Shown here piece after piece: positions 4,445 through 47,118 of a DNA stretch of 64,000 nucleotides. Every line of letters begins with the position of its first letter. Position 1 is the first letter of the stretch. Source of the DNA: Buddleja alternifolia. Its lineage: Eukaryota > Streptophyta > Magnoliopsida > Lamiales > Scrophulariaceae. The translations under genes and the position numbers were made by a program. Under the pieces are notes generated by a model. The model did no database searches and was not told the DNA's origin. It saw only the letters and a list, made by a program, of their open reading frames with translations. The stretch lies in assembly GCA_019426215.1 (NCBI GenBank), contig CM033396.1, positions 24,009,101 through 24,073,100 of the forward strand, read 5' to 3'.

Positions 4445-4476
4445 TTCAGTCCCCAGGAATACGCTATGATGGCCAA

Positions 4477-19052: not shown

Positions 19053-21462
19053 ATATTCTAAGTTGGAACTGAAGGGGTCTAGGGAGGGCTCTGGTAGTTC
19101 AAGAGTTGACGGATCTTAGCCGTTGTCATCGTCCTTTTTTAATTTTTTTATCTGAAACTAAATTTAATAAATCGTTTTTTGATTTTCTTAAGTTTAGGTT
19201 AGGTCTTTTGGTATTTGTATTGAGTCATCGGGTCTATCTGGAGGAGCTCAGCCTTTTGTGGATTAAAGGTTTAGATGTGGTCTTGCAATCTTTTTCTCAT
19301 TCACATATTGATGTTTTTATTTATTCTTCCCCGGAGTCTTCAGCCTAGCGCTTTACGGGGTTTTATGGTAATCCTAAAACTTCTTTGCTTAAAGACAGCT
19401 GGAACCTCCTTCGTAAGCTTTGTGTGGGTCATGTTTCTGCTTGGCTAGTCTGTGGTGACTTTAATGAAATTCTGAATCCGAATGAACAAGAAAATCGTAA
19501 TGATAGGCCCCTTTGGCAAATGCGGGATTTTCGTGAAGCTCTTTCTGATACAGGCCTTCACTATCTAAGTTTTTTGGGGGATATATTTACTTAGTCTAAT
19601 AATCACGAGTTCCCTGACACTGTAAGAGCCCAGTTAGATAGAGGTTGTGTTAACACGAGGTGGTGTGAGCTTTTTCCTAAAACAATTGTGTACCATCTCG
19701 ATGTGCTACATTCCGACCACAATCCTATTTTAATTTGCTCTTCTCCTGCCACTATTTCGACCTCCCCTAAAAAGAAAAAATCTTTAGATTTGAATCTGCA
19801 TGGTTTCGTAAATCTGAATGTGAGAAAGTAATTAAAAATGCATGGGATCCTAGCTTGAATGAGTCCTACGGTGAGAAGGTTAGAGTGAATATTAGAAAGT
19901 GTAGGATTGGCATATTAAATTAGGACAATTCCTCTCGCTCTTCTAATAAAAATTGAATTAAGGAGCTTGAAACTTTAATTGTTCAATTACGTAAAGGGCA
20001 AGTGTCGGCAGCTTCCAAGAATGAGAAATTCCAAGCACGAAAAGAGCTCGAGGAGCTTAAATCGTGCGAGGAAGACGCATGGAAACAACGTAGCCGTGTA
20101 ATTTGGATGAAAGAAGGAGATCATAACACGGGTCATTTCCATGCCCAAGCTACTAGCCGAATGAAAAGCAATAAAATCGATATAATTAAAGACTCGAGTG
20201 GTGATTGGTGGTCTAAAGATAATGAAATCCACTCAGTGATATCCGACTACTTCCAACAAATTTTCTCCTCAATAGATCCGCCGTCTACAATTCTTGGAAA
20301 AGTGCTGAATTTGGTCCAACCTAGAGTTTCAGAGGCTATGAATCGGTCTCTCTGCAACTCGTACACCGTTAAGGAAGTTAAAATTGCTTTGAATCAAATG
20401 CATCCTCTCAAGTCTCCGGGACCTGACGGTATGTCCCCCATTTTCTTTCAATATTTCTGGCATGTGGTTGGGAATGATATAACTCTTTGTGCACTTAATG
20501 CTCTCAATACCAAAACTCTTTTACCAAATTCAATTACACACATATTGTTCTTATCCCAAAGATTGACAAACCTAAGTTGGTATCCCATTTTCGCCCTATT
20601 AGTCTATGTAATGTGGTTTAAAAAATCATCCCTAAATGCATAGCTAACCGAATTAAACCATTCCTACATGATATTATCTATGAATCTCAATCAGCGTTTA
20701 TTCCTAACAGGCTTATCATCGATAATATCTTAATTGCTTATGAGATTAATCACTTTTTGAAAAACAAGAATTCCGAAAAAGATGGTTTTGCAACTCTTAA
20801 ACTCGACATGAGCAAAGCTTATGACAGGGTGGAATGGATTTTTTTGGAAAGGGTGATGGTAAGGTTTGGCTTTGATAAGAACTTCATCGATCTTATCATG
20901 ATGTGTGTGCAATCAGTTACGTATTCCTTTATGTTAACAGGAACCCATTTTGGATATTTAGCTCCACAGCGAGGTATCCAACAGGGTGACCCGTTATCTC
21001 CTCATCTTTTCCTTTTTTGTGCAGAGGTATTTAGTTGTCTTATCCAGGAAGAGGAACCGAAAGGCGAAATCAGTGGTATGAGCATATGTAGAGAGGCACC
21101 AGTTATATTTCACCTCTTATTTGCAGATGATACTCTTATTTTCACAAGGGCAGATGCGCAGTCGATGTGGGCAATTAAGGAAGTTCTTAGGAAATATGCA
21201 CTAGCTTCCGGGAAGGAAATTAATTTGCAGAAATCGTCTATGGTGGTTAGTAAAAATGTCCCGGTATAGGTAGCTCGAGGTTTGGTTACGATTTTAGGAT
21301 TTAAGCTATCAGAAAAACATGAAAAATACTTGGGTCTACCCTCTGTAGTTGGCCGATCAAAAAAGGAGATTTTTGCTTCACTAAGGAATAGAATACACAC
21401 TCAAATTGAGGGATGGAGTGCAAAGTTTTTGTCTCAAGCAGGGAAAGAAGTCTTACTGAAAG
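19049..21462 (+). pseudogene. LINE ORF2, endonuclease and reverse transcriptase part
   Basis: ORF2 starts at ATG 19049. Residues follow the APE-type endonuclease pattern: NILSWN at the start (with TGA where the usual cysteine stands), LSETKFN, LVCGDFNEIL (about 19450-19480) and the SDHNPI end box (about 19715). Stops occur near 19348 and 19593. RT follows from about 20002: LKSPGPDGMSP, KLDMSKAYDRVEWIFLERV, GIQQGDPLSPHLFLFCAEVF and the catalytic box LLFADDTLIF (about 21115-21142), all well kept although the frame shifts near 20550. The palindrome enters within KEVLLK at 21462. The protein would nick DNA and prime reverse transcription at the target. Confidence 0.9.
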
Positions 21463-22768
21463 TGATAAGCTCATATTTTACGCCTTTTAGGCGCCTCTTT
21501 TCTTGTATTTTGATGAGTTCTTGAGTGTATTTATGCCACATATGCTTTGATTTTGTGATTGGTTGTATTTTTATAGGTTATTTGAGAATTGGAGCAAAAA
21601 TGAATGAAAAGATCAAAGAAGTTCTCAAAATACTCCTTTAGCCACGACTATGAAGACCCTTAGCCATGGTGATCATGAAGGAACCTTTGTGCCTTGAAGA
21701 TATGAAGTTACCAAGGCTAAAATAGGCAAAAAACGTGAACAGCAGATTTTAGCCGTGGCTACCGTCTTTTTAGCCATGGCTAAGGGCCGATTTCAGCATC
21801 TACAAATACGCGTTATTAGGTCACAATTCGGGACTTTTGCCCACTTTTGAGGGTTTGACACTTTGAAACACACCAAGAGGGTTGAGAGAAGTCTGGGGAA
21901 GAAGAAGAACCCGAGGATACTCCATCTTTGTCTACGAAGACGGAGAATTCAAGCAAGATCTATCAAGAAACGTTATTAAGGAGTTTTAATTTCATGCTTT
22001 TAGATTTGTTTTCATTGAACATGTCTTTCAAGATGAATTATCTCTTCTTGTTTTACGATTATGACTTAATTTCCCTTTGATTGAGGCCATGTGAAATCCA
22101 ATTACTATGTTTGATTTATGAGTATTATTTTTTCGGATTAAATTTATTTTGGGTTATGTGTTTAATATTTGTTCTTAATGCTTATGATTGCTTAGCTACC
22201 AATCGTATGAATTTGTGCTTAGTTTTGAGACCGAGAGGAGATAAACTAGGGATGCATCTAGGTATTAAACACCACAACGTAAAATTGACTAGAGATAGAT
22301 TCGATTTCCTTGTGTGTGCTTTCTGTGAAAACGGGAAATTCCATGAATCTTTGTAATGCGTTTTCATTAATTTGATTTCATATAGAGATATAGAAATCAT
22401 TAATGAAAATAGAATTGCTATACCAAGAGATTGGATAGTAAGAAATTTAGGGAATTTCGCCTTAACCTAATCAATCTAATAATCCGGTAAGATAGAATCA
22501 TAGTCAAAGTGAATAATTGGTTGAATCATGTGCCTTAATCACTTTTCTCATTGATTTAATTCAAAGTTGATTTCTCTCATTAGTTGGTGATTGTTATTTA
22601 GTATTTTAATTCATAATTCATATCTTTATCTCTTGATTTAACTTAGAATTTGATAACACAGTAATTTCAGTACTTAAATACAATTGTCTCTAGGGTACGA
22701 TAATTCGGACTTACATGAACTATATTACTTGCACGACCTAGTACACTTGCTAGGATTTTTGTGTGTCA
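21463..22768 (+). repeat. left-arm LTR (Tat/Athila-like gypsy)
   Basis: 1306 bp from TGATAAGC to GTGTGTCA, followed 6 bases later by a tRNA-Asp-type primer site, the kind used by Athila/Tat gypsy elements. The open frame of 91 codons at 22081-22356 and its relatives lie within this LTR and show no protein family. Confidence 0.85.
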
Positions 22769-22774
22769 AGTTTT

Positions 22775-22792
22775 TGGCACCGTTGTCCGGGA
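22775..22792 (+). other. primer-binding site (tRNA-Asp), exactly 18 nt
   Basis: TGGCACCGTTGTCCGGGA resembles the complement of the plant tRNA-Asp 3' end (TGGCGCCGTTGCCGGGGA). The next base, 22793, is already the inverted LTR arm. Eighteen nucleotides is the length of tRNA normally copied into plus-strand strong-stop DNA. Confidence 0.8.
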
Positions 22793-24081
22793 CTAGCAAG
22801 TGTACTAGGTCGTGCAAGTAATATAGTGGATGTAAGTCCGGATTATCGTACCCTAGAGACAATTGTATTTAAGTACTGAAATTACTGTGTTATCGAATTC
22901 TAAGTTAAATCAAGAGATAAAGATATGAATTATGAATTAAAATACTAAATAACAATTACCAACTAATGAGAGAAATCAACTTGAATTAAATCAATGAGAA
23001 AAGTGATTAAGGCACATGATTCAATCAATTATTCAATTTGAATATGATTCTATCTTACCGGATTATTAGATTGATTAGGTTAAGGCGAAATTCCCTAAAT
23101 TACTTACTATCCAATCTTTTGGTCTAGCAATTCTATTTTCATTAATGATTTCTATATCTCTATATGAAATCGAATTAATGAAAACGCATTACAAAGATTC
23201 ATGGAATTTCCCGTTTTCACGGAAAGCACGCACAAGGAAATCGAATCTATCTCTAGTCAATTTTACGTTGTGGTGTTTAATACCTAGATGCATCCCTAGT
23301 TTATCTCCTCTCAGTCTCAAAACTAAGCGCAAATTCATACGATTGGTAGCTAAGCAATCATAAGCATTAAGAACAAATATTAAACACATAACCCAAAATA
23401 AATTTAATCCGGAAAAATAATACTCATAAATCAAACATAGTAATTGGATTTCACATGGCCTCAATCAAAGGGAATTATGTCATAATCGTAAAAAAAAAAA
23501 AGATAATTCATCTTGAAAGACATGTTCAATGAAAACAAATCTAAAAGCATGAAATTAAAACTCCCTAATAACGTTTCTTGATAGATCTTGCTTGAATTCT
23601 CCGTCTTCGTAGACAAAGATGGAGTATCCTCACGTTCTTCTTCTTCCCAAACTTCTCTCAACCCTCTTGGTGTGTTTCAAAGTGTCAAACCCTCAAAAGT
23701 GGGCAAAAAGTCCCGAATTTTGACCTAATAACGCGTATTTATAGATGCTGAAATCGGCCCTTAGCCATGGCTAAAAAGATGGTAGCCACGGCTAAAATCT
23801 GTTGTTCACGTTTTTTACCTATTTTAGCCTTGGTAACTTCATATCTTCAAGGCACAAAGGTTCCTTCATGATCACCATGGCTAAAGGTCTTCATAGCCGT
23901 GGCTAAAGGAGTATTTTGAGAACTTCTTTGATCTTTTCATTCATTTTTGCTCCAATTCTCAAATAACCTATAAAAATACAACCAATCACAAAATCAAAGC
24001 ATATGTGGCATAAATACACTCAAGAACTCATCAAAATACAAGAAAAGAGGCGCCTAAAAAGCGTAAAATATGAGCTTATCA
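22793..24081 (-). repeat. right-arm inverted LTR of the palindrome
   Basis: Reverse complement of 21463-22753 with scattered substitutions. It lacks the final 15 U5 bases (GATTTTTGTGTGTCA). It is also the first part of the 12.2-kb duplicated unit, and is repeated at 34967-36257. Confidence 0.92.
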
Positions 24082-24086
24082 GAAAG

Positions 24087-25773
24087 CTGTGGTTCAATCC
24101 ATTCCAACATATACAATGGGTTGTTTCCGGCTACCAGACTCTCTTATTCGTGAAATAGAATCTACGATGGCTAATTTTTGGTGGAATAATTGGGATAGTA
24201 AAAAGATTCACTTGATATCGTGGAGTAAACTGTGCAAGAGGAAAGATGAAGGGGCAATTGGATTTCGAGAATTGAAAATTTTCAATTTCGCAATGCTAGC
24301 AAAACAGGGTTGGAGACTTCTACAGAACCCTAACTCTCTTCTTAGTCGATTGATGAAGGCTCGTTATTTCCCAAAATTTGATTTTTTTACTATACAATTG
24401 GGTTCGGCTCCATCATATACATGGAGAAGCATCCTTGATGCTGGATACATTGTACAACAGGGGAGTAGATGGCGCGTTGGAAACGAAGATGATATTTCTA
24501 TTTGGTCGTATCCATGGTTGCCCTGCAAAACGGGTTTCCGGACCATTACTCCAAACCGTTTTTTGCCTTTCAATGCGAAAGTTAATTCACTGATTGATAA
24601 AGACACGGGATGGTGGAATTATGAACTTATCGATTCGGTTTTTTGCCCGAAAGATGCTCACTTGATTAAGACGATTCCTCTTGGCTCCAACCGTAACAAG
24701 GATCGGCTGATATGGGAGTTTTCGAAATCAGGTATGTTTGTTGTCTGTAGTGCTTATCATATGGCAAAGGAGATGGAGAGAAGAGGAGATGCCCCGTCTA
24801 GTAAGCCAACTCAGGAAGGGAAGTCTTGGCAATTCATTTGGCGCGCTCGGGTTCCACCTAAAGTTAGAGTTTTTGCATGGAAAGCATGCAAACAAGCATT
24901 ACCAACGTCATCAAATCTGCTCAAAAGACGCATTGAGGTATATCGGTGTTGCCAGCAGTGTGAGTCGGAAGATGAGGACCTATTTCACTGTCTGCTTCTA
25001 TGTCCTTTTTCACGGCAGCTTTGGGCTCTATTGGATTTGCCATCTAATATTATTTCAGCTGGGAAGGAATCGGTGGAATCATGGATTCGCCACTGCCATT
25101 CTGAACTTGAACCGGTACACTATGATCTTTTTCTTATATCTTTATGGTTTTTGTGGTATCATAGGAATCAAAAAGTGATGGAAAACAACAATATTCCAAT
25201 GGCTTCTTTGATTACTATGATCCACTTGTTCCATTCATCTTTTACTGCTTCGGAAGAAGTTCAGAAGGTGCAAGTTCTGGATATTACTTCTACCAATTGG
25301 TCCCCTCCTCCTATAGATTGTGTGAAGATAAATTTTGATGGAGCTCAACTTAATGAGCCAAAGGGTTTGGTATTGGAGTGATGGCTCGTGATTTAACTGG
25401 AGGCTGTGTTTATTGGCAAAGAAAATTTCTAGATCGTCAATCATCGGCTGAAATTGGAGAAGCACTTACGTTCTTGGAGGGACTCCGATTGGCATCTATG
25501 AAAGGTTGGAGTAACGTAGTTATTGAGGGTGATTGCCTTTCGCTCATTCAGAAAATTAATTCACCATCAGAGGACTTGTCCTCTGTGGGGCCTTTAGTTT
25601 CAGACATTCGTTTACTAGCTATTTCTTTTGTTTCTGTTAGTTTTTCTTTCATTTGTAGAACTGACAACGGTATTGCACATTGTTTAGCATGTGGTGCTTT
25701 TGTTTCGTCTTCTGGGGATACATCTAATATCCCTGAAGACATTTTATCTTTGATATTGGCTGAATTGGCCTAA
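24087..25773 (+). pseudogene. LINE ORF2 C-terminal half, copy A (zf-RVT, RNase H)
   Basis: Open for 430 codons (24089-25381). It covers the RT thumb region (SIPTYTMGCFRLP, ANFWWNN), the zf-RVT zinc-binding region (WRARVPPKVRVFAWKAC, then CCQQCESEDEDLFHCLLLCP) and the start of RNase H (KINFDGAQ). One base missing after GAGCCAAAGGGT shifts the frame, and the RNase H continues at 25378-25773 (EIGEALTFLEGLRLASMKGW, VIEGDCLSLI, RTDNGIAHCLA). The polypeptide ends at TAA 25771, followed by ATAAATTATCCC and the poly-A tail. Confidence 0.9.
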
Positions 25774-25804
25774 TAAATTATCCCTTTTCTCTTCAAAAAA
25801 AAAT

Positions 25805-26003
25805 TTAAAGAGAGAGAGTTTAAAAAACTGAAAGGAGATGAGTGATGTGAAATGTAATTTTAAAGAAATGATTGCAATTTATTGGGAACGTAAAAACGAG
25901 AATATTTTCAATTAAAAACAGTGTAAATTGTGTATTTTCATTTTCAAATGAAATTGAAAATGGAAAAAGTAAATTGAAATTGCAACCAAACAGCCCGTAG
26001 TGT
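25805..26003 (+). mobile_element. right piece of the split Tourist-like MITE, copy A
   Basis: Starts after the LINE poly-A and ends in CAACCAAACAGCCCG, the complement of a Tourist-like end (GGGCTGTTTGG). Just inside is a small hairpin (ATTTTCATTTTC...GAAAATGGAAAA), in the same place as a similar hairpin in the element at 48090-48478. Repeated in copy B at about 37990-38186. Confidence 0.55.
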
Positions 26004-27065
26004 TTCAAGATGTGGCTTGTGATGCCAAGAAATTCTATTTGTTTCTAATCCTCATATATTTAGGATGACAAGAAATTATATCTCCAAAAATTATTTTTTG
26101 ATTCTAGTATATTCATTCTTGATCTCCAAGATCAGAAATTGGAGAAGGAATAAAGTCCATTCCTCACACCACAAAATAGGCCGCCCCTTGCATCAATTGT
26201 AATTTCTTCGATTAGTTTTGTAATTTTGCTAGTAGAACTTACTCTATTTAATTACTCAAAAATCAATTCCGAGGAGAAAATGATATCAAAATTACCCTTT
26301 TGAAAAAGAGAATATATTATTGGAACTTAAAAATTTGTGATGAGATGAAAAGTCATCTAGCTTGTCTATCCATGAATTTAAAGGCAAGGTACCATTTATA
26401 TTTTTATTTTAAAATTAAGGCATGTTGCCATTGACATAGAAAGGAAAAAAAATTGCTTGACCACTGAATTATTATTGTTACTCAGGGCTTGTTAATATAA
26501 TGATACCAGCTTCCACTTTTAGTTGAGAGATCTTGGGTTCAATTCTAAATTATCAAGTTGTGACTTTTTTTTCCTTATTTAAAGTTTTAGAGGATCTGTG
26601 TGACCCATGATTTAAAACTACTATCAACTCGAATTTGCCGGGTGAAGGCATTCACTTGGTTTGGAACTTAAAAAAAGAAAAACGTGAATGATTTTTGTTA
26701 TAAAAAGGCACCCCAAAGTGTAGAAGCGTCACAAAATTCTAAAGAACTAATGGATTTCCTGTTCAACTCTTTTTTAATATGACTAAATTTGGCTGGTTTA
26801 GAAGCAGTCTAATTTGGGTTGAATGCCTACGTTGAATATACCTTTTTGTTGCCTGCCAAAGTAACAATACGTTCCTTACTTAACGCAGTATCACACAAAA
26901 CTGCACCAGATTTGACAGTAAATAATGGTTCATAATCATGATGAATGTGCCCTCGTCCAAGAGAATTGCTGAGACTTTAAGCTAACAGAAGCTTTCACGA
27001 ATTTTATTTAGGTATATTACAAACGCCATATACGAGCAAATCTTAATAAAAATCTTAATAAAAGC
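26004..27065. other. gene-free stretch, copy A
   Basis: AT-rich, many stops on both strands. No repeat or gene recognised apart from homopolymer runs. Confidence 0.5.
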
Positions 27066-28176
27066 AGACACCACCAACTTATAGGGTGTGCACCTTTGGA
27101 AGCCAGCCTAAAGTGTGTGCCTAACCCTCATCTTTGGTAGATGTTGCATTTCACCCTGTGCTCTGATCCGACTGAATCTTAGAAGATATACAATATTCAC
27201 TTTCTAGCGCATGTGTTACACGCATGGCATGAGTAAGGGTAATCATCACTCTGGGAGCAAAGTCCTATGCATCTCATAGGATTGGCCGGCTTTAGCAAAA
27301 CTTCAAAAAAAAAATTAAATTTGATCTTTGAATTTTTGTTTGAATTCATGATCTTTAATAATTTTAGTTAATTTTTTTAATCACGCCTTAGGAAAAACTG
27401 AGAAATTAATATAAAAAAATGAAGGATATTTCAGACAATTTCTCAAAGTTTAGAAAATTACAAATATTAGAAAAAAAATCTATAAATCAAGAAAAGAAAA
27501 TTAGAAAATCAAAAAAAAAAAGAGAGGGAGAGAGCAGAAAATCTAGAAAAATATAATGAAATATTTAAAAATTAAATTAAAAAAAGATAGAATTTTTTTA
27601 AAACTAGAAAAATAAAAAATAAAAAGCAGAAACAATGAAAAAACATGGTGTGATTTGAAGAGATTGGTGGTGCGCGGTTGTGGGGCATGGGTAGAGGTTC
27701 AACTGAGGAGGCGGTGGGGCATGGTGATGGAGGTGGGTTTTGATGGATTTGAGGAGAATTGTGGTGTTGCCTATGGTTCCCAGCCAACATTGGGAGCATA
27801 GGGTGGCAATGGTGGGTGTCCTGACGACAGCGAGGATGGGTGGAGGCGGCTAGGTCGATGAACTTTTCGGGAAGAAGGGGAAGGAACAAGGGAAAAGAGA
27901 AAGAAACGAAACAAAAGAAAATTAGGGGTGTGAGTAGACAAGCCCATATCCTATGGTGTAAAGAGCACCTTGCCCCCTGAATGACTATTTTGTCCTTACC
28001 CATATAACGTGTATGGCAAGTGCCCTGAAAAGTGAAAGAACTATTCTCTAAGATCATGTGGGTTTCAATAAAAGGGGCTTAAATGCTACATTACATCAAC
28101 CAAAGGTGAGCCCGTCGAGGGTTTATTTTGATAGGTTGTGAACAAAGTACACACCCTTTATAGGTTGGGGGCGTCT
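27066..28176. mobile_element. TIR element with GC-rich centre, copy A
   Basis: The ends match as inverted repeats of about 28 bp: AGACACCACCAACTTATAGG at the left and, reversed, AGACGCCCCCAACCTATAAA at the right, each followed by GGGTGTG. No clear target duplication. The centre (27655-27900) is much richer in G than the surroundings (GGTGGTGCGCGGTTGTGGGG). A 161-codon minus frame (27572-28057) crosses it, with a His/Pro-rich middle and hydrophobic ends. I see no known domain and do not call it a gene. The GC-rich part may be captured sequence (inference). Confidence 0.5.
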
Positions 28177-30442
28177 ATTATCGCTATTTAGTAAGTGATG
28201 GGTTTTGCATATAATTGTCTTTCTTTTCTTTTCTTTTTTTCATAAATATAAAACATTGTTATTCGTTTAATATTGTATATTTTTTTTTAACTTGTTATTA
28301 TTTCATTAATTAGATAATGATTAATGTCGATACTTCATTTTTTCCTATTAATTAATATGCTTCATTTTATTTGCAAGATTTCATGTGCTGATATATTTAA
28401 ATATATTAGTAAACAACATGTGTGTTGCATGTCAATCATATGATCTCGTTAAAATAAATCATATACATAGATATTGTTCAACTTGATGACTCTAAAACTT
28501 AAACAATAATTTAATTAATGAATTATTAAATATTAATTAATAAACTATAATTATTTAAAAAATCAAATATTGCTTGACATAAAATGTTGAATAAATGTTA
28601 GAAGAAGCTAAATTAACTTTTTTGTTCTCCATCATTGGATAATTGATGATCAACCGTTAAATCAAAAAATGATTCAAAAAAAAAAACTAAAATTTCAAAA
28701 AAATTCAGAAGAATTAGGGAAAAATAAGAAAAGTAAATATAAACATTGTGAAATTCAGAAAAAACATTATAAGTTGTAATTTAATTATATTATGGATGCA
28801 ATAGAAATATAGTTGATGCAATACCAAAATGAATGAGTTGAATGGATAAAATGAAATTTACCATTCAACAAATTAAACGAGGATAGTTGGATAAATAAAA
28901 ATAAAGTGGTGTGAAAGTCATCAGGAAGTAAAAGTGACAAATATTGAATTACAACCAAAGACGCCAATATATCTCCTAAGACCATGCAGGAAGAGTGGTT
29001 ACTCTTTCTTTTTTTGCATTATTATTATTACTATTATTTATTAATATTACTATTTAAATAAAATAATAAAAATGATGCCTGGCTTGTAAAGCTTTCCCAA
29101 GTCTTTCTTGGTAAGTTGTTTTTTGTATGCTTTTTGTAATGATATTCAATTTTCTCAATCATTGTAATATTCATTTAATTAATTAAAAAATTAGAATGTT
29201 AACAACGATATTCATATAAATTTATTTGTTCCAAGTTCAAGCAGATTAAGCTTTTTATCTTCTTTTTTTCTTTTAATGAATTAATTATAGTGTATACAAA
29301 AACATGATTCAAACAGACGAAAAACTCCCAAAATTATCAGGGGATTTGCTTCATCAAAGAATAAAATAAATGAGATAAATAATAATATAACTCATTTTAA
29401 AAATAACTAATTTGGATATCATAGTCAATTTTGAGTCCTTCAAAGAAACGAATTGTAACAATCATGAGCTAAACTACAACAATGTTTTGTATTAACTCAG
29501 TGCAGAATTAGTGATATATATTTTATCGTTTTAGGTTTTTTGGTTAAACATTTTATCATTTTAGGATAATTAGAAGATATTGTACCTTTGCAACAAATAC
29601 GATGTAGGAGGAGGTCCGATGGTTAAATGTGATTGTGATTCCATTATAGAGTCCTACTGTAACTATACACTTCATTATTATAAATTGTCAAAATAAGGGT
29701 GTCCTCGATTGAGTTTGGGCATTTTTACGAAAAAAGTTCAACACAACCCGACATGTGTTTGTTGACATTATCAAACTAACACATAATCATCTTTTCAAAC
29801 TGAGTGGTTTGAGTTAGGGGTTCAACTGTTCAAGGTTTTTGGCGAACAAATTGAAGGATATTTGAATCTTCATTATAGCTCCTACAACTTATTTATAGTT
29901 ACAAGTAATAAGGAACAAACTAAAGAACATAAATCTTATTGTAAATTTAATTGAAAAAATTTGAGTAGGTGAGATAAGAAACAACAACAAATAGATATTA
30001 TTAAATAAAATATATATTGTCATGATTTGAAATGAGTAAATATTATAAATATAATTTGTTATATAAATTCATCATAAGTATATATTTGTTTTCTTTGTTA
30101 TGAAATCAAAATTTTCGTTCAAATAAAATAAAAACAAGTTCTCAAACATGATACCAATTTCTTATCCAATTCATTCAAATAAAATATAATTGGATTACAT
30201 GAGTATGAATAAAACCATTCTTATTAGAAAGTATATATGTATGTATTTTTTCAAAGTTTTATATATAGTGGTTGGGTTGCGAGTTAAAATTATTAAACTC
30301 ACTATTCAACCCGAAAGTGGTGAGTCTATTAAATTGTTCCTATTACTTAAAAATTTTAAATCGGCATTTCTCGGGCAAATCAACTCGATTTTAGAAGTTT
30401 GGGAGGATTTATGTACACTCCTAATTCAAAATTTATTTTTAA
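28177..30442. other. gene-free stretch, copy A
   Basis: Strongly AT-rich with (A)n and (ATT)n runs. No gene or element ends recognised. Confidence 0.5.
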
Positions 30443-31056
30443 GAAAAATTACTAAAAAACCCCTAAAAATAAATTTTTATATCCAAAAAACCCTTGATAA
30501 AAATTTTCAATCCAAAAAACCCATTCACAAACTTTTCATTCCAAAAAGCCCAAGATTTAGGATTAATAAATTTATGGACTTACATGCCCTTAGCCTTCTA
30601 GACTAAAATTTTATTAATTATAGTTTTGTATAGAGATTTATTTATTTAGAAATTTTATATTGATAATTGATTAATGTAATTTTATTTTTAAATTTTTCAA
30701 ATTTTTAATCTTCTTAAAAATTTAAAGAAATATATTTTTTTAGATAATTATCTTAGTAAAATAAAAAAATAAATTATATAAAAGTATTAAAATTATTTAA
30801 TACTAAAAATATAAATTTATATTATTCAACTTATCAATTTGAGAATTTTAAAACAAAAAAAAAGTCAATAAAAAGATCAATTGATCGATTTTTAACTTAA
30901 TAAATGAAGGGTAATTTAGTTAAAGAAATTCATAATCATAATTTTTGGGGGTTTTTTGAATGGAAAGTTTGTAGAGTGGGTTTTTGAGATTGAAAAATAT
31001 TTTCATGGGTTCTTTTAATACAAAAGTTTATTTTAGAGGGGTTTTAGTATTTTGTT
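30443..31056. mobile_element. MITE with long TIRs (Mutator-like), copy A
   Basis: 614 bp with inverted ends of about 115 bp (left GAAAAATTACTAAAAAACCC, right ending GGGGTTTTAGTATTTTGTT). It is flanked by ATTTATTTTTAA on the left and ATTTATTTTTTAA on the right. A target duplication of this length and AT content fits Mutator-like elements. A diverged third copy is at 48077-49080. The 138-codon frame at 30190-30606 runs into the TIR and is not a gene. Confidence 0.75.
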
Positions 31057-33719
31057 ATTTATTTTTTAAAAATTTTTACCATTAAAAATTGAATTACATA
31101 TTTTAGGTACGTCAAAAGTTCCAAAAATTTTATATCATTATAGTTTGGATTCCAAAATTTGTGCGAAATGAGCTACCAAACTTAAATTTGTGCTTGATTT
31201 TTCATTCATATCCATTTTAACTTAAAAAAAAAAACTAAAAAATTATTGACGTATTCCTATTTCATGGAATTTAATATTAAATATTAACTTGTTTGTGACT
31301 TTGTGGTAACGTATATATGTGTACATGTTAGGGATATTTGATTTCCTATATTCTTCTTTAATAAATAAATATATAGAAATAATCTTATCTAGGTGTTATT
31401 TCATTGTAGACTCTTAATTTAATTATACTTCTTATTGTTGTAGATTTATAAAACTTATTTTTATTATTTGTTTTGGACTCTTTTGCCGTTAAAAAATTGA
31501 ATTCCTTAGGGATATATAAAAAATGTCAAAAAATCAACTCGTACATTTATAATTATAATAGAATAAATAAATAGATAGATAGATTTGTAGTATAAAAAAA
31601 ATCATAATGCCTCCTTTAATGCTAGGGTTTTGGCAATGTAACAATACTGTACGACTTCATGTCAAAGTAGACATATTTTAATTTTTAATCACTTGTTTGT
31701 TTGCTTCAGATATCAACGTAATTGCTAATTATGGGGAAACTTTCCATGCTGAATAATATTTTACAATTTAACAAACGTGCTAGCTATAGCTACTTAAGTT
31801 GATCATATAGCTTAAGTTTAGAATATAAAGAAAACAAATTCAGAAGCATGCCCAAAATCGAAGTTATGACAAGTGTGCACCTTTACTTGAATCTGAAATT
31901 AACTTTAATCAAAACGTTCGGTGACTCTTAAATAAGACAAATATGTAATAATTAACAATAAAAGATTATATTAGTGATTAAACGTGAAACAATAATACTA
32001 AAACTATCACCATAAATACATCATAATTGATAAAAAAATTTAGAGAATCACAGTAATAACTTTTATTTACAATGGTTGTTTAAGCTGTCCTTGTTGACAT
32101 TTTGAATCCTAACTTATCTTTGGGAAACTTATAAGCCTTTTACATTTAATGTTTTAAAGAGTTTAAGCTCACCAAAACACCCTCTTAATGACAGCACAAT
32201 ATAGTGACAATTATATTTATTGTTACTAAATTATCACTAATCATCAATGATTATAATAATTTCTGTATCGCTAATTGTGTCAAAAGTGACAATTTATACA
32301 CAACTTTTATCACTATAAAATTTGTGAAAATTATTTTTTATGACAAAATAAAATTTGTTGGCACTTGATGATAGATATATATAATTAATGGTAATTTTAA
32401 CATTGAAAATTGACGTCTTAGTCATTATGTTTTATATTTTATAATGAATAAACTAACAACTATCGAGCGTATAATAAATTACTATTACATAAACAAATAA
32501 TAAATTACTATTAAATAAACAAGTGCTCACATATAAATGATAGTCGAATTTGCAGACCTCGATTCCAACCAATAGTTCAAGAACATATCACTGACATCTG
32601 TGTTCATCTCACTTAATAAAAGTTTCGCATAAATCGCCGAAGCAGCATTCATTTGTTCCCTATTGAACCTTGAATTTTCTTTTTCTTACTGGCCAAAAGG
32701 GAAAAAAGAATAACAAAAAGAAGACGAATTTGTGGGCGTAAGAACGAAATACACGATATAGATTTATTATTTATCATAATTATATCTATTTTTAATTCAA
32801 GAAATGAAAATAATATGATCATAGTCAGAATGTATCAGGAATCTGTAGAAATGGTGGGATACTTGTGAGTTGTGATCATAATAATGTAACTGAAAATTAA
32901 TAGTAAATTCCAGAAGTTTAATTTTATCAATCTATTACTTGTCAAGTAAAAACGTTAACAAATTGTCCTTATCTGTTTGAAATTAAGTGCAATTGTACCT
33001 TGAACAGATTCACCGCACTTATGTTGTCCGAACTTATGTGTGAGATCATGACTTGTGAACACAGTCAAATTCTGGTCAACAGTGAGAAATTTCTCGACCT
33101 TTTCACGATTAATGACTAGGGGAATTTTATTTATTTATTTGGATAAATATGATTAATAGTCACGAAAATTTCAATTTTGTATCACTTTAGTCTTTAAAAT
33201 ATTTAATGTTATCCTATTATTTTCAAAATTAATTTAGCTATTTATGGTTGATTTTGGACGGATTTGGGAGTATTTGCACGTCAAGTATCACCTTTTAGAG
33301 GCAATTGTGAGGTGCATATGTTTACATGTGAAGTGTAGATGTTGCTCGATCCATCCAAAATCTATCCAAAAATGGCCGAAAGGACGAAAGTGAAACAAAA
33401 ACTAAACTTTAGGGATAATAGGATAATATTTGATACTTTCAAGATCAAAGTGATATGTACCTAAAACTTTATTGACTATTAGTGACATTCGCCTAAAAAC
33501 TTTTCTCAAGTAATACTTAAAACTCTTTAGCTCGATTCGCCCTCTTTCAAGTTAATAAATATTCCTATAATTCAAAAGAATATCAAGATAGACTATTGTG
33601 TGAAAATTTCAAATCTATAAAATCTCTAAATCAATATTTTCGATTTAAAAGTATTTGGAGCAACTCAAATTGATCATTGTGATAAAATCTCAATATGAGG
33701 TCTTGAATATTTTTGAAGA
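31057..33719. other. gene-free stretch, copy A
   Basis: AT-rich. Around 32180-32420 are short GTGACAA/TTGTCAC words like the subterminal repeats of the CACTA-like element at 56320, possibly a remnant of such an element. No coding seen. Confidence 0.45.
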
Positions 33720-34250
33720 AATGTGTTGAGTATTGGTGGAGTCATATGAAAACAAGAGTCAAAAACGGGAGCCAAGGGATAGCGAAATGGAGTCAAAGGG
33801 AACCGGGGCAACAATATGGAGGCACAACGCGATAAATTTCGCGCCGCATCTCTAGCTAGTGGTGCTGCAACGTGGGCTGGTCGAAGCAGCACTCTCAAGC
33901 TGCAGCGAACAGGTTTACTTGCTGCAACGCAAGGTGAAAGAGCGATTTCGTCGTTTTGACATGTTTTCACTCCTAAATTGTTTTGGAATTGTTTGGGATT
34001 TATTCCCTAGTATGTTATGATTGTTTTTCCTAGTCTTGTTAGGATTTTGACTCTTGTACTCTATAAAGAATAGAACTCAAAACTTCTAAATATTGAATAA
34101 CTTTGATAACTTGAATAATATCTAGTTGAAGGTGCCCTTGATTGGTTTCCGCCTAGAAAAATCATAGTCTCTTTATTACTTTATTCTCCCATTATGTTCT
34201 TTAAGTTTCCAAGTATTTTCACCGTTGAGTCGTGTGTTCTTAACAGAAAT
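33720..34250 (+). repeat. possible old LTR fragment, copy A
   Basis: A GC-richer island (33830-33960) followed by CCTAGTCTTGTTAGGATTTT and CTCTATAAAG, wording common in plant LTR promoter regions. I could not fix TG/CA ends or a target duplication, so this is a suggestion only. The 98-codon minus frame here has no family. Confidence 0.3.
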
Positions 34251-34923
34251 GGACTCACTATTTTCCCGGATGACTTAGTTAGCGTGAAGAGATTAAACTC
34301 ATTATATATATGTCCCAACATCCTTGTACGATTTCATGTCAAAATTTTACTATAGGAAGTGATTCACATATAAAACAAACTCAAGCAACTTGTGGGTACA
34401 TTTATTAGATAACTACAATGCTAACTTTTTTGATGCTCAATGACGTGACATTTACTAATTCACAAGTTAATACATATGTAATTTTGAGTTAATGCTCTTC
34501 GTTTATGCAAACCACAAGTTTATGTTTATGTGTTTTTCCACTTTTTCTCTTTTCTATTTTTACTATTGAGCAATTTATCGGAAGAAAAATACCAAGAACC
34601 AGAGATTGCTAATTAGAAACGGATAAATACTCAAAATATTAGTTTACCAATTGAGCTTTTAATTCCAAATCGTAAAAATATTAAGTAATATTATAAATGA
34701 TTGTTGGGCGAGGTAAATCCCCGTGGAGGGTAGAGTTCCAGGGGACAACTACTACTGACAGATACAATAATACTTATTTAGTGATTGGTTATTTATATCA
34801 ATTATATGCTATACTAAGTATAATTGATTCATAATTCGATACATTTAAATTGTCACCCCGAGGCCTTCCAGATTGAGCATATTAATTGAGGTGTTGAGTG
34901 GTCCTCTCAAAATTCCACAATTA
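34251..34923. other. gene-free stretch, end of copy A
   Basis: AT-rich. No feature apart from the duplication junction at its end. Confidence 0.5.
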
Positions 34924-34966
34924 CTAGGATTTTTGTGTGTCAAGTTTTTGGCACCGTTGCCCGGGA

Positions 34967-36257
34967 CTAGCAAGTGTACTAGGTCATGCAAGTAATATAG
35001 TGGATGTAAGTCCGGATTATCGTACCCTAGAGACAATTGTATTTAAGTACTGAAATTACTGTGTTATCGAATTCTAAGTTAAATCAAGAGATAAAGATAT
35101 GAATTATGAATTAAAATACTAAATAACAATTACCAACTAATGAGAGAAATCAACTTTGAATTAAATCAATGAGAAAAGTGATTAAGGCACATGATTCAAC
35201 CAATTATTCAATTTGACTATGATTCTATCTTACCGGATTATTAGATTGATTAGGTTAAGGCGAAATTCCCTAAATTACTTACTATCCAATCTCTTGGTAT
35301 AGCAATTCTATTTTCATTAATGATTTCTATATCTCTATATGAAATCGAATTAATGAAAACGCATTACAAAGATTCATGGAATTTCCCGTTTTCACGGAAA
35401 GCACACACAAGGAAATCGAATCTATCTCTAGTCAATTTTACGTTGTGGTGTTTAATACCTAGATGCATCCCTAGTTTATCTCCTCTCGGTCTCAAAACTA
35501 AGCACAAATTCATACGATTGGTAGCTAAGCAATCATAAGCATTAAGAACAAATATTAAACACATAACCCAAAATAAATTTAATCCGGAAAAATAATACTC
35601 ATAAATCAAACATAGTAATTGGATTTCACATGGCCTCAATCAAAGGGAATTATGTCATAATCATAAAAAAAAAATAGATAATTCATCTTGAAAGACATGT
35701 TCAATGAAAACAAATCTAAAAGCATGAAATTAAAACTCCCTAATAACGTTTCTTGATAGATCTTGCTTGAATTCTCCGTCTTCGTAGACAAAGATGGAGT
35801 ATCCTCGCGTTCTTCTTCTTCCCCAGACTTCTCTCAACCCTCTTGGTTTGTTTCAAAGTGTCAAACCCTCAAAAGTGGGCAAAAGTCCCAAATTTTGACC
35901 TAATAACGCGTATTTATAGATGCTGAAATTGGCCCTTAGCCATGGCTAAAAAGACGGTAGCCACGGCTAAAATCTGTTGTTCACGTTTTTTTACCTATTT
36001 TAGCCTTGGTAACTTCATATCTTCAAGGCACAAAGGTTCCTTCATGATCACCATGGCTAAGGGTCTTCATAGCCGTGGTTAAAGGAGTATTTTGAGAACT
36101 TCTTTGATCTTTTCATTCATTTTTGCTCCAATTCTCAAATAACCTATAAAAATACAACCAATCACAAAATCAAAGCATATGTGGCATAAATACACTCAAG
36201 AACTCATCAAAATACAAGAAAAGAGGCGCCTAAAAAGCGTAAAATATGAGCTTATCA
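34967..36257 (-). repeat. inverted LTR arm, copy B
   Basis: Second copy of the palindrome's right arm, ending ATGAGCTTATCA and GAAAG (36258-36262) before LINE sequence. Without a left arm here it is no longer palindromic. In places it is closer to the left arm than copy A is (for example GACTATGATTC near 35214). Confidence 0.92.
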
Positions 36258-36262
36258 GAAAG

Positions 36263-37953
36263 CTGTGGTTCAATCCATTCCAACATATACAATGGGTTGT
36301 TTCCGGCTACCAGACTCTCTTATTTGTGAAATAGAATCTACGATGGCAAATTTTTGGTGGAATAATTGGGATAGTAAAAAGATTCACTTGATATCGTGGA
36401 GTAAACTGTGCAAGAGGAAAGATGAAGGGGGAATTGGATTTCGAGAATTGAAAATTTTCAATTTCGCAATGCTAGAAAAACAGGGTTGGAGACTTCTACA
36501 GAACCCTAACTCTCTTCTTAGTCGATTGATGAAGGCTCGTTATTTCCCAAAATTTGATTTTTTACTATACAATTGGGTTCGGCTCCATCATATACATGGA
36601 GAAGCATCCTTGATGTTGGATACATTGTACAACAGGGGAGTAGATGGCGCGTTGGAAACGAAGATGATATTTCTATTTGGTCGTATCCATGGTTGCCCCG
36701 CAAAACGGGTTTCCGGACCATTACTCCAAACCGTTTTTTGCCTTTCAATGCGAAAGTTAATTCACTGATTGATAAAGACACGGGATGGTGGAATTATGAA
36801 CTTATCGATTCGGTTTTTTACCAGAAAGATGCTCACTTGATTAAGACGATTCCTCTTGGCTCCAACCGTAACAAGGATCGGCTGATATGGGAGTTTTCGA
36901 AATCAGGTATGTTTGTTGTCTGTAGTGCTTATCATATGGCAAAGGAGATGGAGAGAAGAGGAGATGCCCCATCTAGTAAGCCAACTTAGGAAGGGAAGTC
37001 TTGGCAATTCATTTGGCGCGCTCGGGTTCCACCTAAAGTTAGAGTTTTTGCATGGAAAGCATGCAAACAAGCATTACCAACGTCATCAAATCTGCTCAAA
37101 AGACGCATTGAGGTATATCGGTGTTGCCATCAGTGTGAGTCGGAAGATGAGGACCTATTTCACTGTCTGCTTCTATGTCCTTTTTCACGGCAGCTTTGGG
37201 CTCTATTGGATTTGCCATCTAATATTATTTCAGCTGGGAAGGAATCGGTGGAATCATGGATTCGCCACTGCCATTCTGAACTTGAACCGGTACACTATGA
37301 TCTTTTTCTTATATCTTTATGGTTTTTGTGGTATCATAGGAATCAAAAAGTGATGGAAAACAACAATATTCCAATGGCTTCTTTGATTACTATGATCCAC
37401 TTGTTCCATTCATCTTTTACTGCTTCGGAAGAAGTTCAGAAGGTGCAAATTTTGGATATTACTTCTACCAATTGGTCCCCTCCTCCTATAGATTGTGTGA
37501 AGATAAATTTTGATGGAGCTCAACTTAATGAGCCAAAGGGTATTGGTATTGGAGTGATGCATGGCTCGTGATTTAACTGGAGGCTGTGTTTATTGGCAAA
37601 GAAAATTTCTAGATCGTCAATCATCGGCTGAAATTGGAGAAGCATTTACGTTCTTGGAGGGACTCCGATTGGCATCTATGAAAGGTTGGAGTAACGTAGT
37701 TATTGAGGGTGATTGCCTTTCCCTCATTCAGAAAATTAATTCACCATTAGAGGACTTGTCCTCTGTGGGGCCTTTAGTTTCAGACATTCGTCTACTAGCT
37801 GCTTCTTTTGTTTCTGTTAGTTTTTCTTTCATTTGTAGAGTTGACAACGGTATTGCACATTGTTTAGCATGTGGTGCTTTTGTTTCGTCTTCTGGGGATA
37901 CATCTAATATCCCTGAAGACATCTTATCTTTGATATTGGCTGAATTGGCCTAA
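36263..37953 (+). pseudogene. LINE ORF2 C-terminal half, copy B
   Basis: Duplicate of 24087-25773 with its own lesions: one T fewer in the T run near 36560 (frameshift), a TAG in place of CAG at about 36987, and a 4-bp CATG insertion near 37560 at the start of RNase H. It lacks the one-base deletion that disables copy A at the same domain. All zf-RVT and RNase H motifs remain readable. It has no 5' half of its own, because the duplication began inside the palindrome. Confidence 0.9.
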
Positions 37954-37989
37954 TAAATTATCCATTTTCTCTTCAAAAAATTTTTTTTA

Positions 37990-38186
37990 AGAGAGAGAGA
38001 GTTTAAAAAACTGAAAGGAGATGAGTGATGTGAAATGTAATTTTAAAGAAATGATTGCAATTTATTGGGAACGTAAAAACGAGAATATTTTCACTTAAAA
38101 ACAGTGTAAATTGTGTATTTTCATTTTCAAATGAAATTGAAAATGGAAAAAGTAAATTGAAATTGCAACCAAACAGCCCGTAGTGT
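37990..38186 (+). mobile_element. right piece of the split Tourist-like MITE, copy B
   Basis: Duplicate of the piece at 25805-26003, with the same CAACCAAACAGCCCG end. Confidence 0.5.
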
Positions 38187-39247
38187 TTCAAGATGTGGCT
38201 TGTGATGCCAAGAAATTCTATTTGTTTCTAATCCTCATATATTTAGGATGACAAGAAATTATATCTCCAAAAATTATTTTTTGATTCTAGTATATTCATT
38301 CTTGATCTCCAAGATCAGAAATTGGAGAAGGAATAAAGTCCATTCCTCACACCACAAAATAGGCCGCCCCTTGCATCAATTGTAATTTCTTCTATTAGTT
38401 TTGTAATTTTGCTAGTAGAACTTACTCTATTTAATTACTCAAAAATCAATTCCGAGGAGAAAATGATATCAAAATTACCCTTTTGAAAAAGAGAATATAT
38501 TATTGGAACATAAAAATTTGTGATGAGATGAAAAGTCATCTAGCTTGTCTATCCATGAATTTAAAGGCAAAGGTACCATTTATATTTTTATTTTAAAATT
38601 AAGGCATGTTGCCATTGACATAGAAAGGAAAAAAAATTGCTTGACCACTGAATTATTATTGTTACTCGGGGCTTGTTAATATAATGATACCAGCTTCCAC
38701 TTTTAGTTGAGAGATCTTGGGTTCAATTCTAAATTATCAAGTTGTGACTTTTTTTTTTATTTAAAGTTTTAAAGGATCTGTGTGACCCATGATTTAAAAC
38801 TACTATCAACTCGAATTTGCCGGGTGAAGGCATTCACTTGGTTTGGAACTTAAAAAAAGAAAAATGTGAATGATTTTTGTTATAAAAAGGCACCCCAAAG
38901 TGTAGAAGCGTCACAAAATTCTAAAGAACTAATGGATTTCCTGTTCAACTCTTTTTTAATATGACTAAATTTGGCTGGTTTAGAAGCAGTCTAATTTGGG
39001 TTGAATGCCTACGTTGAATATACCTTTTTGTTGCCTGCCAAAGTAACAATACGTTCCTTACTTAACGCAGTATCACACAAAACTGCACCAGATTTGACAG
39101 TAAATAATGCTTCATAATCATGATGAATGTGCCCTCGTCCAAGAGAATTGCTGAGACTTTAAGCTAACAGAAGCTTTCACGAATTTTATTTAGGTATATT
39201 TCAAACGCCATATACGAGCAAATCTTAATAAAAATCTTAATAAAAGC
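38187..39247. other. gene-free stretch, copy B
   Basis: Duplicate of 26004-27065; nothing further seen. Confidence 0.5.
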
Positions 39248-40368
39248 AGACACCACCAACTTATAGGGTGTGCACCTTTGGAAGCCAGCCTGTGCCTAAC
39301 CCTCATCTTTGGTAGATGTTGCATTTCACCCTGTGCTCTGATCCGACTGAATCTTAGAAGATATACAATATTCACTTTCTAGCGCGTGTGTCACACGCAT
39401 GGCATGAGTAAAGGTAATCATCACTCTGGGGGCAAAGTCCTATGCATCTCATAGGATTGGGCGGCTTTAGCAAAACTTCAAAAAAAAATTAAATTTGATC
39501 TTTGAATTTTTGTTTGAATTCATGATCTTTAATAATTTTAGTTAATTTTTTTAATCACGCCTTAGAAAAAACTGAGAAATTAATATAAAAAAATGAAGGA
39601 TATTTCAGACAATTTCTCAAAGTTTAGAAAATTACAAATATTAGAAAAAAAATCTATAAATCAAGAAAAGAAAATTAGAAAATCAAAAAAAAAAGAGAGA
39701 GAGGGAGAGAGCAGAAAATCTAGAAAAATATAATGGAATATTTAAAAATTAAATTAAAAAAAGATAGAATTTTTTTAAAACTAGAAAAATAAAAAATAAA
39801 AAGCAGAAACAATGAAAAAACATGGTGTGATTTGAAGAGATTGGTGGTGCGCGGTTGTGGGGCATGGGTAGAGGTTTGACTGAGGAGGCGGTGGGGCATG
39901 GTGATGGAGGTGGGTTTTGATGGATTTGAGGAGAATTGTGGTGTTGCCTATGGTTCCCAGCCAACATTGGGAGCATAGGGTGGCAATGTGGCAATGGTGG
40001 GTGTCCTGACGACAGCGAGGATGGGTGGAGGCGGCTAGGTCGATGAGGTTTTCGGGAAGAAGGGGAAGGAACAAGGGAAAAGAGAAAGAAAACGAAACAA
40101 AAGAAAATTAGGGGTGTGAGTAGACAAGCCCATATCCTATGGTGTAAAGAGCACCTTGTCCCCTGAATGACGATTTTGTCCTTACCCATATAACGTGTAT
40201 GGCAAGTGCCCTGAAAAGTGAGAGAACTATTCTCTAAGATCATGTGGGTTTCAATAAAAGGGGCTTAAATGCTACATTACATCAACCAAAGGTGAGCCCG
40301 TCGAGGGTTTATTTTGATAGGTTGTGAACAAAGTACACATGTACACCCTTTATAGGTTGGGGGCGTCT
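39248..40368. mobile_element. TIR element with GC-rich centre, copy B
   Basis: Duplicate of 27066-28176. Differences include loss of a short TAAAGTGTG segment near 39290, an extra GTGGCAAT repeat near 39988 and an ACATGTAC insertion near 40338. These keep no common reading frame with copy A, which argues against the His/Pro-rich frame being under selection. Confidence 0.5.
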
Positions 40369-42634: not shown

Positions 42635-43249
42635 GAAAAATTACTAAAAAACCCCTAAAAATAAATTTTTATATCCAAAAAACCATTGATAAAAATTTTC
42701 AATCCGAAAAACCCATTCACAAACTTTTCATTCCAAAAAGCTCAAGATTTAGGATTAATAAATTTATGGCCTTACATGCCCTTAGCCTTCTAGACTAAAA
42801 TTTTATTAATTATAGTTTTGTATAGAGATTTATTTATTTAGAAATTTTATATTGATAATTGACTAAATATAATTTTATTTTTAAATTTTTCAAATTTTTA
42901 ATCTTCTTAAAAATTTAAAGAAATATATTTTTTAAGATAATTATCTTAGTAAAATAAAAAAATAAATTATATAAAAGTATTAAAATTATTTAATACTAAA
43001 AATATAAATTTATATTATTCAACTTATCAATTTGAGAATTTTAAAACAAAAAAAGAGTCAATAAAAAGATCAATTGATCGATTTTTAACTTAATAAATGA
43101 AGGGTAATTTAGTTAAAGAAATTCATAATCATAATTTTTGGGGGTTTTTTGAATGGAAAGTTTGTAGGGTGGGTTTTTGAGATTGAAAAATATTTTCATG
43201 GATTTTTTTAATACAAAAGTTTATTTTAGAGGGGTTTTAGTATTTTGTT
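42635..43249. mobile_element. MITE with long TIRs (Mutator-like), copy B
   Basis: Duplicate of 30443-31056 with the same flanking AT-rich duplication. Confidence 0.75.
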
Positions 43250-45911: not shown

Positions 45912-46440
45912 AATGTGTTGAGTATTGGTGGAGTCATATGAAAACAAGAGTCAAAAACGGGAGCCAAGGGATAGCGAAATGGAGTCAAAGGGAACCGGGG
46001 CAACAATATGGAGGCACAACGCGATAAATTTCGCGCCGCATCTCTAGCTAGTGGTGCTGCAGCGTGGGCTGGTCGAAGCAGCACTCTCAAGCTGCAGCGA
46101 ACAGGTTTACTTGCTGCAACGCAAGGTGAAAGAGCGATTTCGTCGTTTTGACATGTTTTCACTCCTAAATTGTTTTGGAATTGTTTGGGATTTATTCCCT
46201 AGTATGTTATGATTGTTTTTCCTAGTCTTGTTAGGATTTTGACTCTTGTACTCTATAAAGAATAGAACTCAAAACTTGTAAATATTGAATAACTTTGATA
46301 ACTTGAATAATATCTAGTTGAAGGTGCCCTTGATTGGTTTCCGCCTAGAAAAATCATAGTCTCTTTATTACTTTATTCTCCCATTATGTTCTTTAAGTTT
46401 CCAAGTATTTTCACCGTTGAGTCGTGTGTTCATAACAGAA
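45912..46440 (+). repeat. possible old LTR fragment, copy B
   Basis: Duplicate of 33720-34250; the same uncertainty applies. Confidence 0.3.
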
Positions 46441-47118
46441 ATGGACTCACTATTTTCCCGGATGACTTAGTTAGCGTGAGGAGATTAAACTCATTATATA
46501 TATGTCCCAACATCCTTGTACGATTTCATGTCAAAATTTTACTATAGGAAGTGATTCACATATAAAACAAACTCAAGCAACTTGTGGGTACATTTATTAG
46601 ATAACTACAATGCTAACTTTTTGATGCTCAATGACGTGACATTTACTAATTCACAAGTTAATACATATGTAATTTTGAGTTAATGCTCTTCGTTTATGCA
46701 AACCACAAGTTTATGTTTATGTGTTTTTCCACTTTTTCTCTTTTCTATTTTTACTATTGAGCAATTTATCGGAAGAAAAATACCAATAACCAGAGATTGC
46801 TAATTAGAAACGGATAAATACTCAAAATATTAGTTTACCAATTGAGCTTTTAATTCCAAATCGTAAAAATATTAAGTAATATTATAAATGATTGTTGGGC
46901 GAGGTAAATCCCCGTGGAGGGTAGAGTTCCAGGGGACAACTACTACTGACAGATACAATAATACTTATTTAGTGATTGGTTATTTATATCAATTATATGC
47001 TATACTAAGTATAATTGATTCATAATTCGATACATTTAAATTGTCACCCCGAGGCCTTCCAGATTGAGCATATTAATTGAGGTGTTGAGTGGTCCTCTCA
47101 AAATTCCACAATTACTAG

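What the first reader, a model, noticed from the sequence alone, without database searches (positions are those of the whole stretch)
21463..24081. Integrated palindromic LTR with two U3 ends and no element body
Seen: a near-perfect 2.6-kb inverted repeat, both outer ends TGATAAGCTC..., flanked by one 5-bp target duplication (GAAAG) inside a LINE. Ordinary solo LTRs have one U3 and one U5 end. Here both ends are U3, yet the 5-bp duplication shows integrase-type insertion of one DNA molecule. Inference: an aberrant reverse-transcription product, LTR joined to its own reverse complement, was accepted by integrase. I know of palindromic retroviral cDNAs as by-products, but not of this as a described class of plant insertion.
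Basis: partly seen in the sequence, partly recalled or inferred. Interest (0 to 1): 0.88.

Follow-up and report, generated by a model that had tools for sequence, protein, structure and literature searches.

The report
Inserted palindrome of a retrotransposon LTR
A plant jumping gene appears to have inserted a faulty copying by-product, one end-repeat joined through the primer site to its own mirror image, and a second such joint elsewhere in the genome breaks at nearly the same copying landmark.

Summary
Window 21463-24081 is one insertion with two exact U3 ends and a 5-bp target duplication (GAAAG); a related LINE in the window shows the empty site. Copies elsewhere in this 854-Mb genome fix the LTR at 1306 bp and show that elements continue YAATTG after the primer-binding site (12 of 12). 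The palindrome turns round right after the 18th primer-site base (one base of ambiguity), the stop expected of plus-strand strong-stop DNA (+sssDNA). Its arms form a clade among 43 LTRs (bootstrap 99). A second tail-to-tail LTR joint, on contig C17, leaves the element at base 18 (up to two bases of ambiguity), enters the inverted LTR elsewhere and ends in an exact U3; its far end was not found, so its target duplication is untested. Best explanation: a displaced +sssDNA, a reported dead-end product in yeast Ty particles, was extended back along a plus-strand LTR to the U3 terminus, and integrase inserted the U3/U3 duplex. Later the loop edge became one end of a 12.2-kb tandem duplication with CTAG microhomology. 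Frequency and long-read confirmation remain open.

The parts
21458..21462 (.). 5-bp target site duplication GAAAG, left copy
   Evidence: sequence; empty-site alignment to the paralogous LINE
21463..22768 (+). complete LTR (1306 bp), U3 end outward
   Evidence: LTR limits from 38 other copies in the genome
22769..22774 (+). AGTTTT spacer between LTR and primer-binding site
   Evidence: same spacer in 11 of 12 sampled primer-site-bearing copies
22775..22792 (+). 18-base primer-binding site, tRNA-Asp type (name recalled); right arm begins at the next base
22793..24081 (-). inverted LTR, positions 1291 to 1, U3 end outward
24082..24086 (.). 5-bp target site duplication GAAAG, right copy
20416..25770 (+). 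host LINE (approximate extent) interrupted by the insert: RVT_1 ORF 20622-21266 before, zf-RVT and RVT_3 ORFs after
62223..63557 (-). paralogous LINE without the insert, used as empty site
22750..34923 (+). first unit of 12.2-kb tandem duplication; its left edge is CTAG at the loop edge
34924..47114 (+). second unit of the tandem duplication; holds a second copy of loop and inverted arm (34967-36257)
   Evidence: K2P 0.0123 over 12140 aligned sites

Best explanation
It is an integrated dead-end reverse-transcription product. Step 1: plus-strand synthesis from the polypurine tract made U3-R-U5 and copied 18 bases of the primer tRNA, giving +sssDNA (the break at base 18 is shown, the intermediate inferred). 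Step 2: the displaced +sssDNA moved its 3' end onto a plus-sense LTR strand, its own or another, at LTR position 1291, and was extended to that strand's 5' end, making a second exact U3 terminus (inferred). Step 3: the second strand was completed, giving a linear duplex with U3 at both ends (inferred; the least certain step). Step 4: the element's integrase joined both U3 ends to the LINE with the family's usual 5-bp stagger (ends and target duplication shown, enzyme inferred). Step 5: later, the palindrome's loop edge became one breakpoint of a 12.2-kb tandem duplication (shown; that the palindrome caused it is inferred).
For: Both ends are U3 to the base, with one GAAAG duplication and an unbroken empty site in a paralogue. 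Seven of the 38 sampled family LTRs are flagged as solo LTRs with 5-bp target duplications. Native sequence after the primer site is YAATTG in 12 of 12 primer-site-bearing copies; the palindrome departs there at base 18 or 19. LEFT+R1+R2 form a clade: FastTree support 0.957, 41 LTRs; ultrafast bootstrap 99, 43 LTRs. The arms share 5 variants found in two or fewer of 38 family copies; the mean over 703 family pairs is 0.34-0.35 and 9 pairs reach 5. Second joint at C17: LTR-AGTTTT-18-base primer site-7 further bases-inverted LTR from 1303, exact U3 end. In Ty3, (+)DNA synthesis first ends inside the tRNA, that strand is displaced, and dead-end (+)sssDNA accumulates (PMC5371799, section 6 read).
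Against: The primer site in both duplicate copies shares two differences from the family's common form (positions 5 and 14); a fresh tRNA copy should have been exact. From one search counts I expect roughly 0.1 shared changes in 18 bases (hand estimate); none of the 12 sampled primer sites has these letters either. At both joints the letters after base 18 start like the native leader (C in the window, CA at C17), so the breaks may lie 1 and 2 bases inside the leader, which a tRNA-templated end would not give. At the strictest count the arms share only 1 private variant, which 48-49 of 703 pairs also reach. No complementarity is evident at the jump point. A simple fold-back gives a hairpin with one end. 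Only 2 joints were found; the second lacks a testable far end, and its arms (96.2% identical) are not sisters in the tree, with weak support of 56-57. Ty3 is described as copying 12 tRNA bases; 18 is the retroviral figure (recalled).
Confidence: 0.66

Rival explanations
1. End joining before integration: two separate double-stranded LTR-primer-site molecules were joined tail to tail by host end joining, one trimmed by about 40 bases, and the joined linear was integrated through its two U3 ends.
For: Gives a duplex with two ends directly; the extra bases at the C17 joint and the 1-base overlap at the window joint resemble end-joining scars; both joints may lie 1-2 bases inside native leader; C17 arms need not share a source.
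Against: Needs two abortive duplexes that each already have a free U3 end. The window's arms form a clade, which fits copying from one template at least as well.
Confidence: 0.2
2. Two cDNAs (or one long palindromic cDNA) were integrated through U3 ends, and the bodies were later deleted from the chromosome, leaving LTR-primer site/inverted LTR.
For: The C17 joint sits next to an element body and polypurine tract, so joints with body exist; palindromes invite central deletion.
Against: A random deletion would have to stop within 0-2 bases of primer-site base 18 at two loci. At most one base of leader remains in the window copy.
Confidence: 0.08
3. Ordinary insertion followed by an inversion, or an assembly artefact.
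For: No reads were available to me. The region also holds a 12.2-kb tandem duplication, a known source of assembly error.
Against: Exact U3 plus a matching 5-bp duplication at both ends, empty site without gap. Arms differ by K2P 0.021-0.025, so they are not one sequence read twice. The loop is present in both duplicate units with one difference in 48 bases. An inversion ending exactly at the LTR edge would be a coincidence.
Confidence: 0.05

Closest known systems
Solo LTR
   Same: LTR sequence without element body, 5-bp target duplication
   Different: A solo LTR has one U3 and one U5 end and no primer site; this has two U3 ends, a primer site and 2.6 kb of inverted repeat
Dead-end plus-strand strong-stop DNA of yeast Ty elements (PMC5371799, section 6 read)
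   Same: U3-R-U5 ending inside the tRNA copy
   Different: There it is an unintegrated by-product in yeast particles; here it appears turned back on itself and integrated in a chromosome
Palindromic retroviral cDNA by-products
   Same: LTR joined to its reverse complement through misprimed synthesis
   Different: Known to me as unintegrated DNA; here there is a target duplication
LTR hairpins from nested or tail-to-tail EVD insertions (PMC11624286, passages seen)
   Same: Neighbouring LTRs in opposite orientation, a possible dsRNA source
   Different: The passages consider two insertions or rearrangements and report one nested case; here one insertion makes the inverted pair

Membership tests
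Insertion by this LTR family's integrase | 5-bp target duplication flanking exact LTR termini | tested here: met
   GAAAG on both sides, empty site without gap; 7 solo LTRs flagged with 5-bp duplications among 38 copies
Solo LTR | one U3 end and one U5 end | tested here: not met
   both outer ends are U3
Solo LTR | no internal-region sequence | tested here: not met
   AGTTTT spacer and primer site present at 22769-22792
+sssDNA-derived product | plus-strand LTR sequence ends after the tRNA-copied primer site | tested here: met
   break at base 18 in the window (1 base ambiguous) and at C17 (2 bases ambiguous); native continuation YAATTG in 12 of 12
+sssDNA-derived product | primer site identical to the tRNA at insertion | tested here: inconclusive
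   C17 carries the family's common form; the window event has two shared differences; no host tRNA gene was examined
Ty3/gypsy of Tat/Athila type | encoded polymerase and integrase domain order | tested here: inconclusive
   one body ORF of 381 aa had no Pfam match; the rest of the body was not scanned; lineage guessed from the tRNA-Asp-type primer site only (recalled)
DNA transposon or foldback element with terminal inverted repeats | dispersed copies as inverted-repeat units rather than LTR elements | tested here: not met
   sampled copies are LTRs beside a polypurine tract or primer site, or solo LTRs; 2 palindromic places in the genome by the pattern

The most novel reading that the evidence does not exclude
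Integrated U3/U3 palindromes formed from discarded +sssDNA are a recurrent, overlooked class of plant LTR insertion. They record the dead-end product of multiple plus-strand priming, they create LTR hairpin loci in one step that could start silencing of the family, and they are fragile sites that seed tandem duplications.
Probability: 0.28. Interest if true: 0.8.

Novelty: new variant of a known kind. Interest (0 to 1): 0.63.

Why it matters
If right, genomes keep fossils of reverse-transcription intermediates that I know only as unintegrated by-products, so the plus-strand priming model from yeast could be tested in plants by sequence search alone. It would show integrase accepting two U3 ends in nature. 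It also gives a one-event origin for LTR inverted repeats, which have been looked for as triggers of retrotransposon silencing (PMC11624286, passages), and an example of such a palindrome's centre being a rearrangement breakpoint.

Tried and rejected
Rejected: two separate insertions (one matching target duplication, empty site without gap). Rejected: CTAG microhomology with the element's own leader as cause of the joint; the leader is YAATTG, so at most 1 base is shared. Rejected as a further palindrome: C10:12946355, no match to this LTR and no palindrome in the 9 kb fetched beyond short self-matches of about 120 bases or less. Weak test: asking whether arm differences coincide with family polymorphism. 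The post-duplication control pair gave 9 of 18, LEFT-R2 13 of 28 and C17 30 of 52, so it does not tell one source RNA from two; tree position and shared rare variants were used instead.

Led nowhere: family or primer-site patterns in viral contigs (0; 10 stretches, none plant-like by eye) and genome contigs (6 stretches, 5 not plant-like by eye, 1 plant-like, L013); plasmid search (none); tRNA and Rfam scans of the window (none). C17's 5' LTR was looked for in the about 26 kb beyond its 3' LTR (L060-L062) and not found. Other pattern searches for palindromes (10-base arms with 0-60 or 60-120 gap, deeper entry with CTAAGTTAAATC, two facing primer sites) did not complete.

Papers: all ten searches used. 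In their listings I saw no report of an integrated U3/U3 palindromic LTR, but the library lacks most subscription journals. Passages only were seen of PMC3187697, PMC12789967, PMC6547461 and PMC11624286; passages and section 6 of PMC5371799.

Full report
What is there. At 21463-24081 a 1306-bp LTR, a 6-base spacer and an 18-base primer-binding site are followed directly by the same LTR in reverse, from LTR position 1291 to 1. Both outer ends are the U3 end TGATAAGCTC. GAAAG stands on both sides. The target is a LINE: an RT domain lies before the insert, and zf-RVT and RNase H-like domains after it. A diverged LINE copy at 62.2-63.6 kb on the other strand runs straight through the site; with insert and one GAAAG left out the two align over 1373 columns at 66%, with no gap at the site. 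So this is one insertion with a 5-bp duplication, not two.

The family. The window lies in an 854-Mb assembly. The first look gave 2331 candidates, of which 40 were scored, and 42 rows were listed. Four rows are the window's own locus (three arms and the second loop); the other 38 are LTRs elsewhere, all of which I extracted. They fix the LTR limits: U3 starts TGATAA in 38 of 38; the U5 end is TGTGTCA in 37 of 38. Fifteen are preceded by a polypurine tract (TTGGGGGTGT in 12, close variants in 3). Seven are flagged as solo LTRs with 5-bp target duplications. Twelve carry the spacer (AGTTTT in 11, ACTTTT in 1), the primer site (7 of 12 with the common letters, 5 with changes), then YAATTG (12 of 12). 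Six pairs of rows lie 4.74-4.91 kb apart, giving elements of about 6.1 kb; one body ORF of 381 aa had no Pfam match, so the sampled form may be non-autonomous.

The turn-round point. The palindrome leaves native sequence right after primer-site base 18. The next native base, C, is also the first base of the right arm, so the break could be one base later. In retroviruses, plus-strand strong-stop DNA (+sssDNA) is U3-R-U5 plus the tRNA copy, which stops at 18 bases at a modified base (recalled). In Ty3 the first +sssDNA also runs into the tRNA (12 bases), is displaced by later rounds, and dead-end +sssDNA accumulates (PMC5371799, section 6 read).

Same source for both arms. In a 41-sequence tree the three arm copies form a clade with support 0.957. 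In a 43-sequence maximum-likelihood tree they form one with ultrafast bootstrap 99. They share 5 variants found in two or fewer of 38 family copies, against a mean of 0.34-0.35 per family pair; 9 of 703 pairs reach 5, and 3 of these 9 are the two LTRs of one element (with places). With stricter limits the signal is weaker: 3 variants at one or fewer (11 pairs reach this), 1 private variant (48-49 pairs). The C17 arms share 3 at two or fewer (18 pairs reach this). Left-right divergence is K2P 0.021-0.025; six paired LTRs in the sample range from 0.0046 to 0.0363. With a recalled plant rate of 1.3e-8 per site per year this is about 0.8-1.0 million years.

A second joint. The pattern TACACTTGCTAG - 0 to 60 bases - CTAGCAAGTGTA, whose motif is in 36 of 38 sampled LTRs, occurs at 2 places in the genome, with none in the reversed control: the window and C17:21837661-21837740. 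At C17, read on the minus strand, an element body (from body position 1988 of the one body I fetched), the polypurine tract, a complete LTR, AGTTTT and the 18-base primer site with the family's common letters are followed by CACAGTG and then the inverted LTR from position 1303, ending in an exact U3. CACAGTG begins like the native leader (CA), so this break may lie up to two bases later. The right entry differs from the window's, so the events look independent. Against this as a full sister case: beyond body position 1988 the DNA no longer matches the fetched body and includes a Ulp1-like ORF; this may be truncation or another body. No 5' LTR was found in the next 26 kb or so, so no target duplication could be tested. 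Its arms are 96.2% identical and are not sisters in the tree, though support there is weak; they may stem from two RNAs.

A search for the primer site followed by a non-native fourth base gave 89 hits; 74 continue YTTR, the leader of other elements, and 15 have other letters. I opened 32 of the 89: C17, C10, and the 30 returned as loci L067-L096, of which 1 is a close family copy, 3 are distant relatives and none has an inverted self-match of 150 bases or more within its 3 kb. A search for right-arm entries at about LTR positions 1236-1290 found only the window. Deeper entries were not searched because the tool did not complete. The count of 2 is therefore a lower bound.

Mechanism. Shown: ends, target duplication, empty site, break at or within two bases of base 18, common source of the window's arms, second joint. 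Inferred: the +sssDNA turned onto a plus-sense LTR strand and was extended to its 5' end, which by itself explains why the second terminus is an exact U3; the second strand was completed; integrase joined two U3 ends. The weak points are the completion of the second strand, the two shared primer-site differences in the window event, and the 1-2 leader-like bases at the joints. End joining of two abortive duplexes before integration is the strongest rival.

After insertion. A 12.2-kb tandem duplication begins at CTAG, the last bases of the left arm before the loop (22750-22753), and ends at CTAG at 47115-47118; the junction keeps one CTAG (34924-34927). Units differ by K2P 0.0123 over 12140 sites with 30 gap events, about half the arm divergence, so the duplication is younger. 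That one breakpoint lies on the edge of the palindrome's loop suggests the palindrome broke there. The second unit preserves loop and right arm, which is also an internal check that the joint is real.

Novelty. In the ten paper searches listed I found no description of an integrated U3/U3 palindromic LTR; the library is partial. I file it as a new variant of a known kind (aberrant LTR-retrotransposon insertion).

Noticed in passing
window 22750-47118: 12.2-kb tandem duplication (K2P 0.0123) with CTAG microhomology, one breakpoint at the palindrome's loop edge.
   Followed up: yes
window 30443-31067, 42635-43260, 48478-49089: About 600-bp repeat in three copies: two are the tandem-duplicate pair, the third is about 83% identical; copies also match in inverted orientation at about 69%.
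   Followed up: no
window 1283-4489 minus strand: Remains of a Ty3-type element: gag, protease and RNase H domains in separate ORFs.
   Followed up: no
L029, L064 (C3:48379815 onward): LTR preceded by a polypurine tract and followed by AGTTTTTG, then joined to family body at about position 2218: a tandem or jump joint that breaks two bases into the primer site. L049 also has AGTTTTTG after its 3' LTR.
   Followed up: partly
L030 with L021 (C2): 3' LTR followed by one extra A and then GTTTT, matching the GTTTT before the 5' LTR: possibly incomplete trimming of the U5 end.
   Followed up: no
L013 (BMWJ01000030.1, Streptomyces clavifer record): 3.9-kb contig with 37% GC and a plant-type LTR/primer-site junction; looks like plant contamination.
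   Followed up: no
window 21640-21790 (U3): Repeated short near-palindromic motif of the type TTAGCCRTGGCTA in U3.
   Followed up: no
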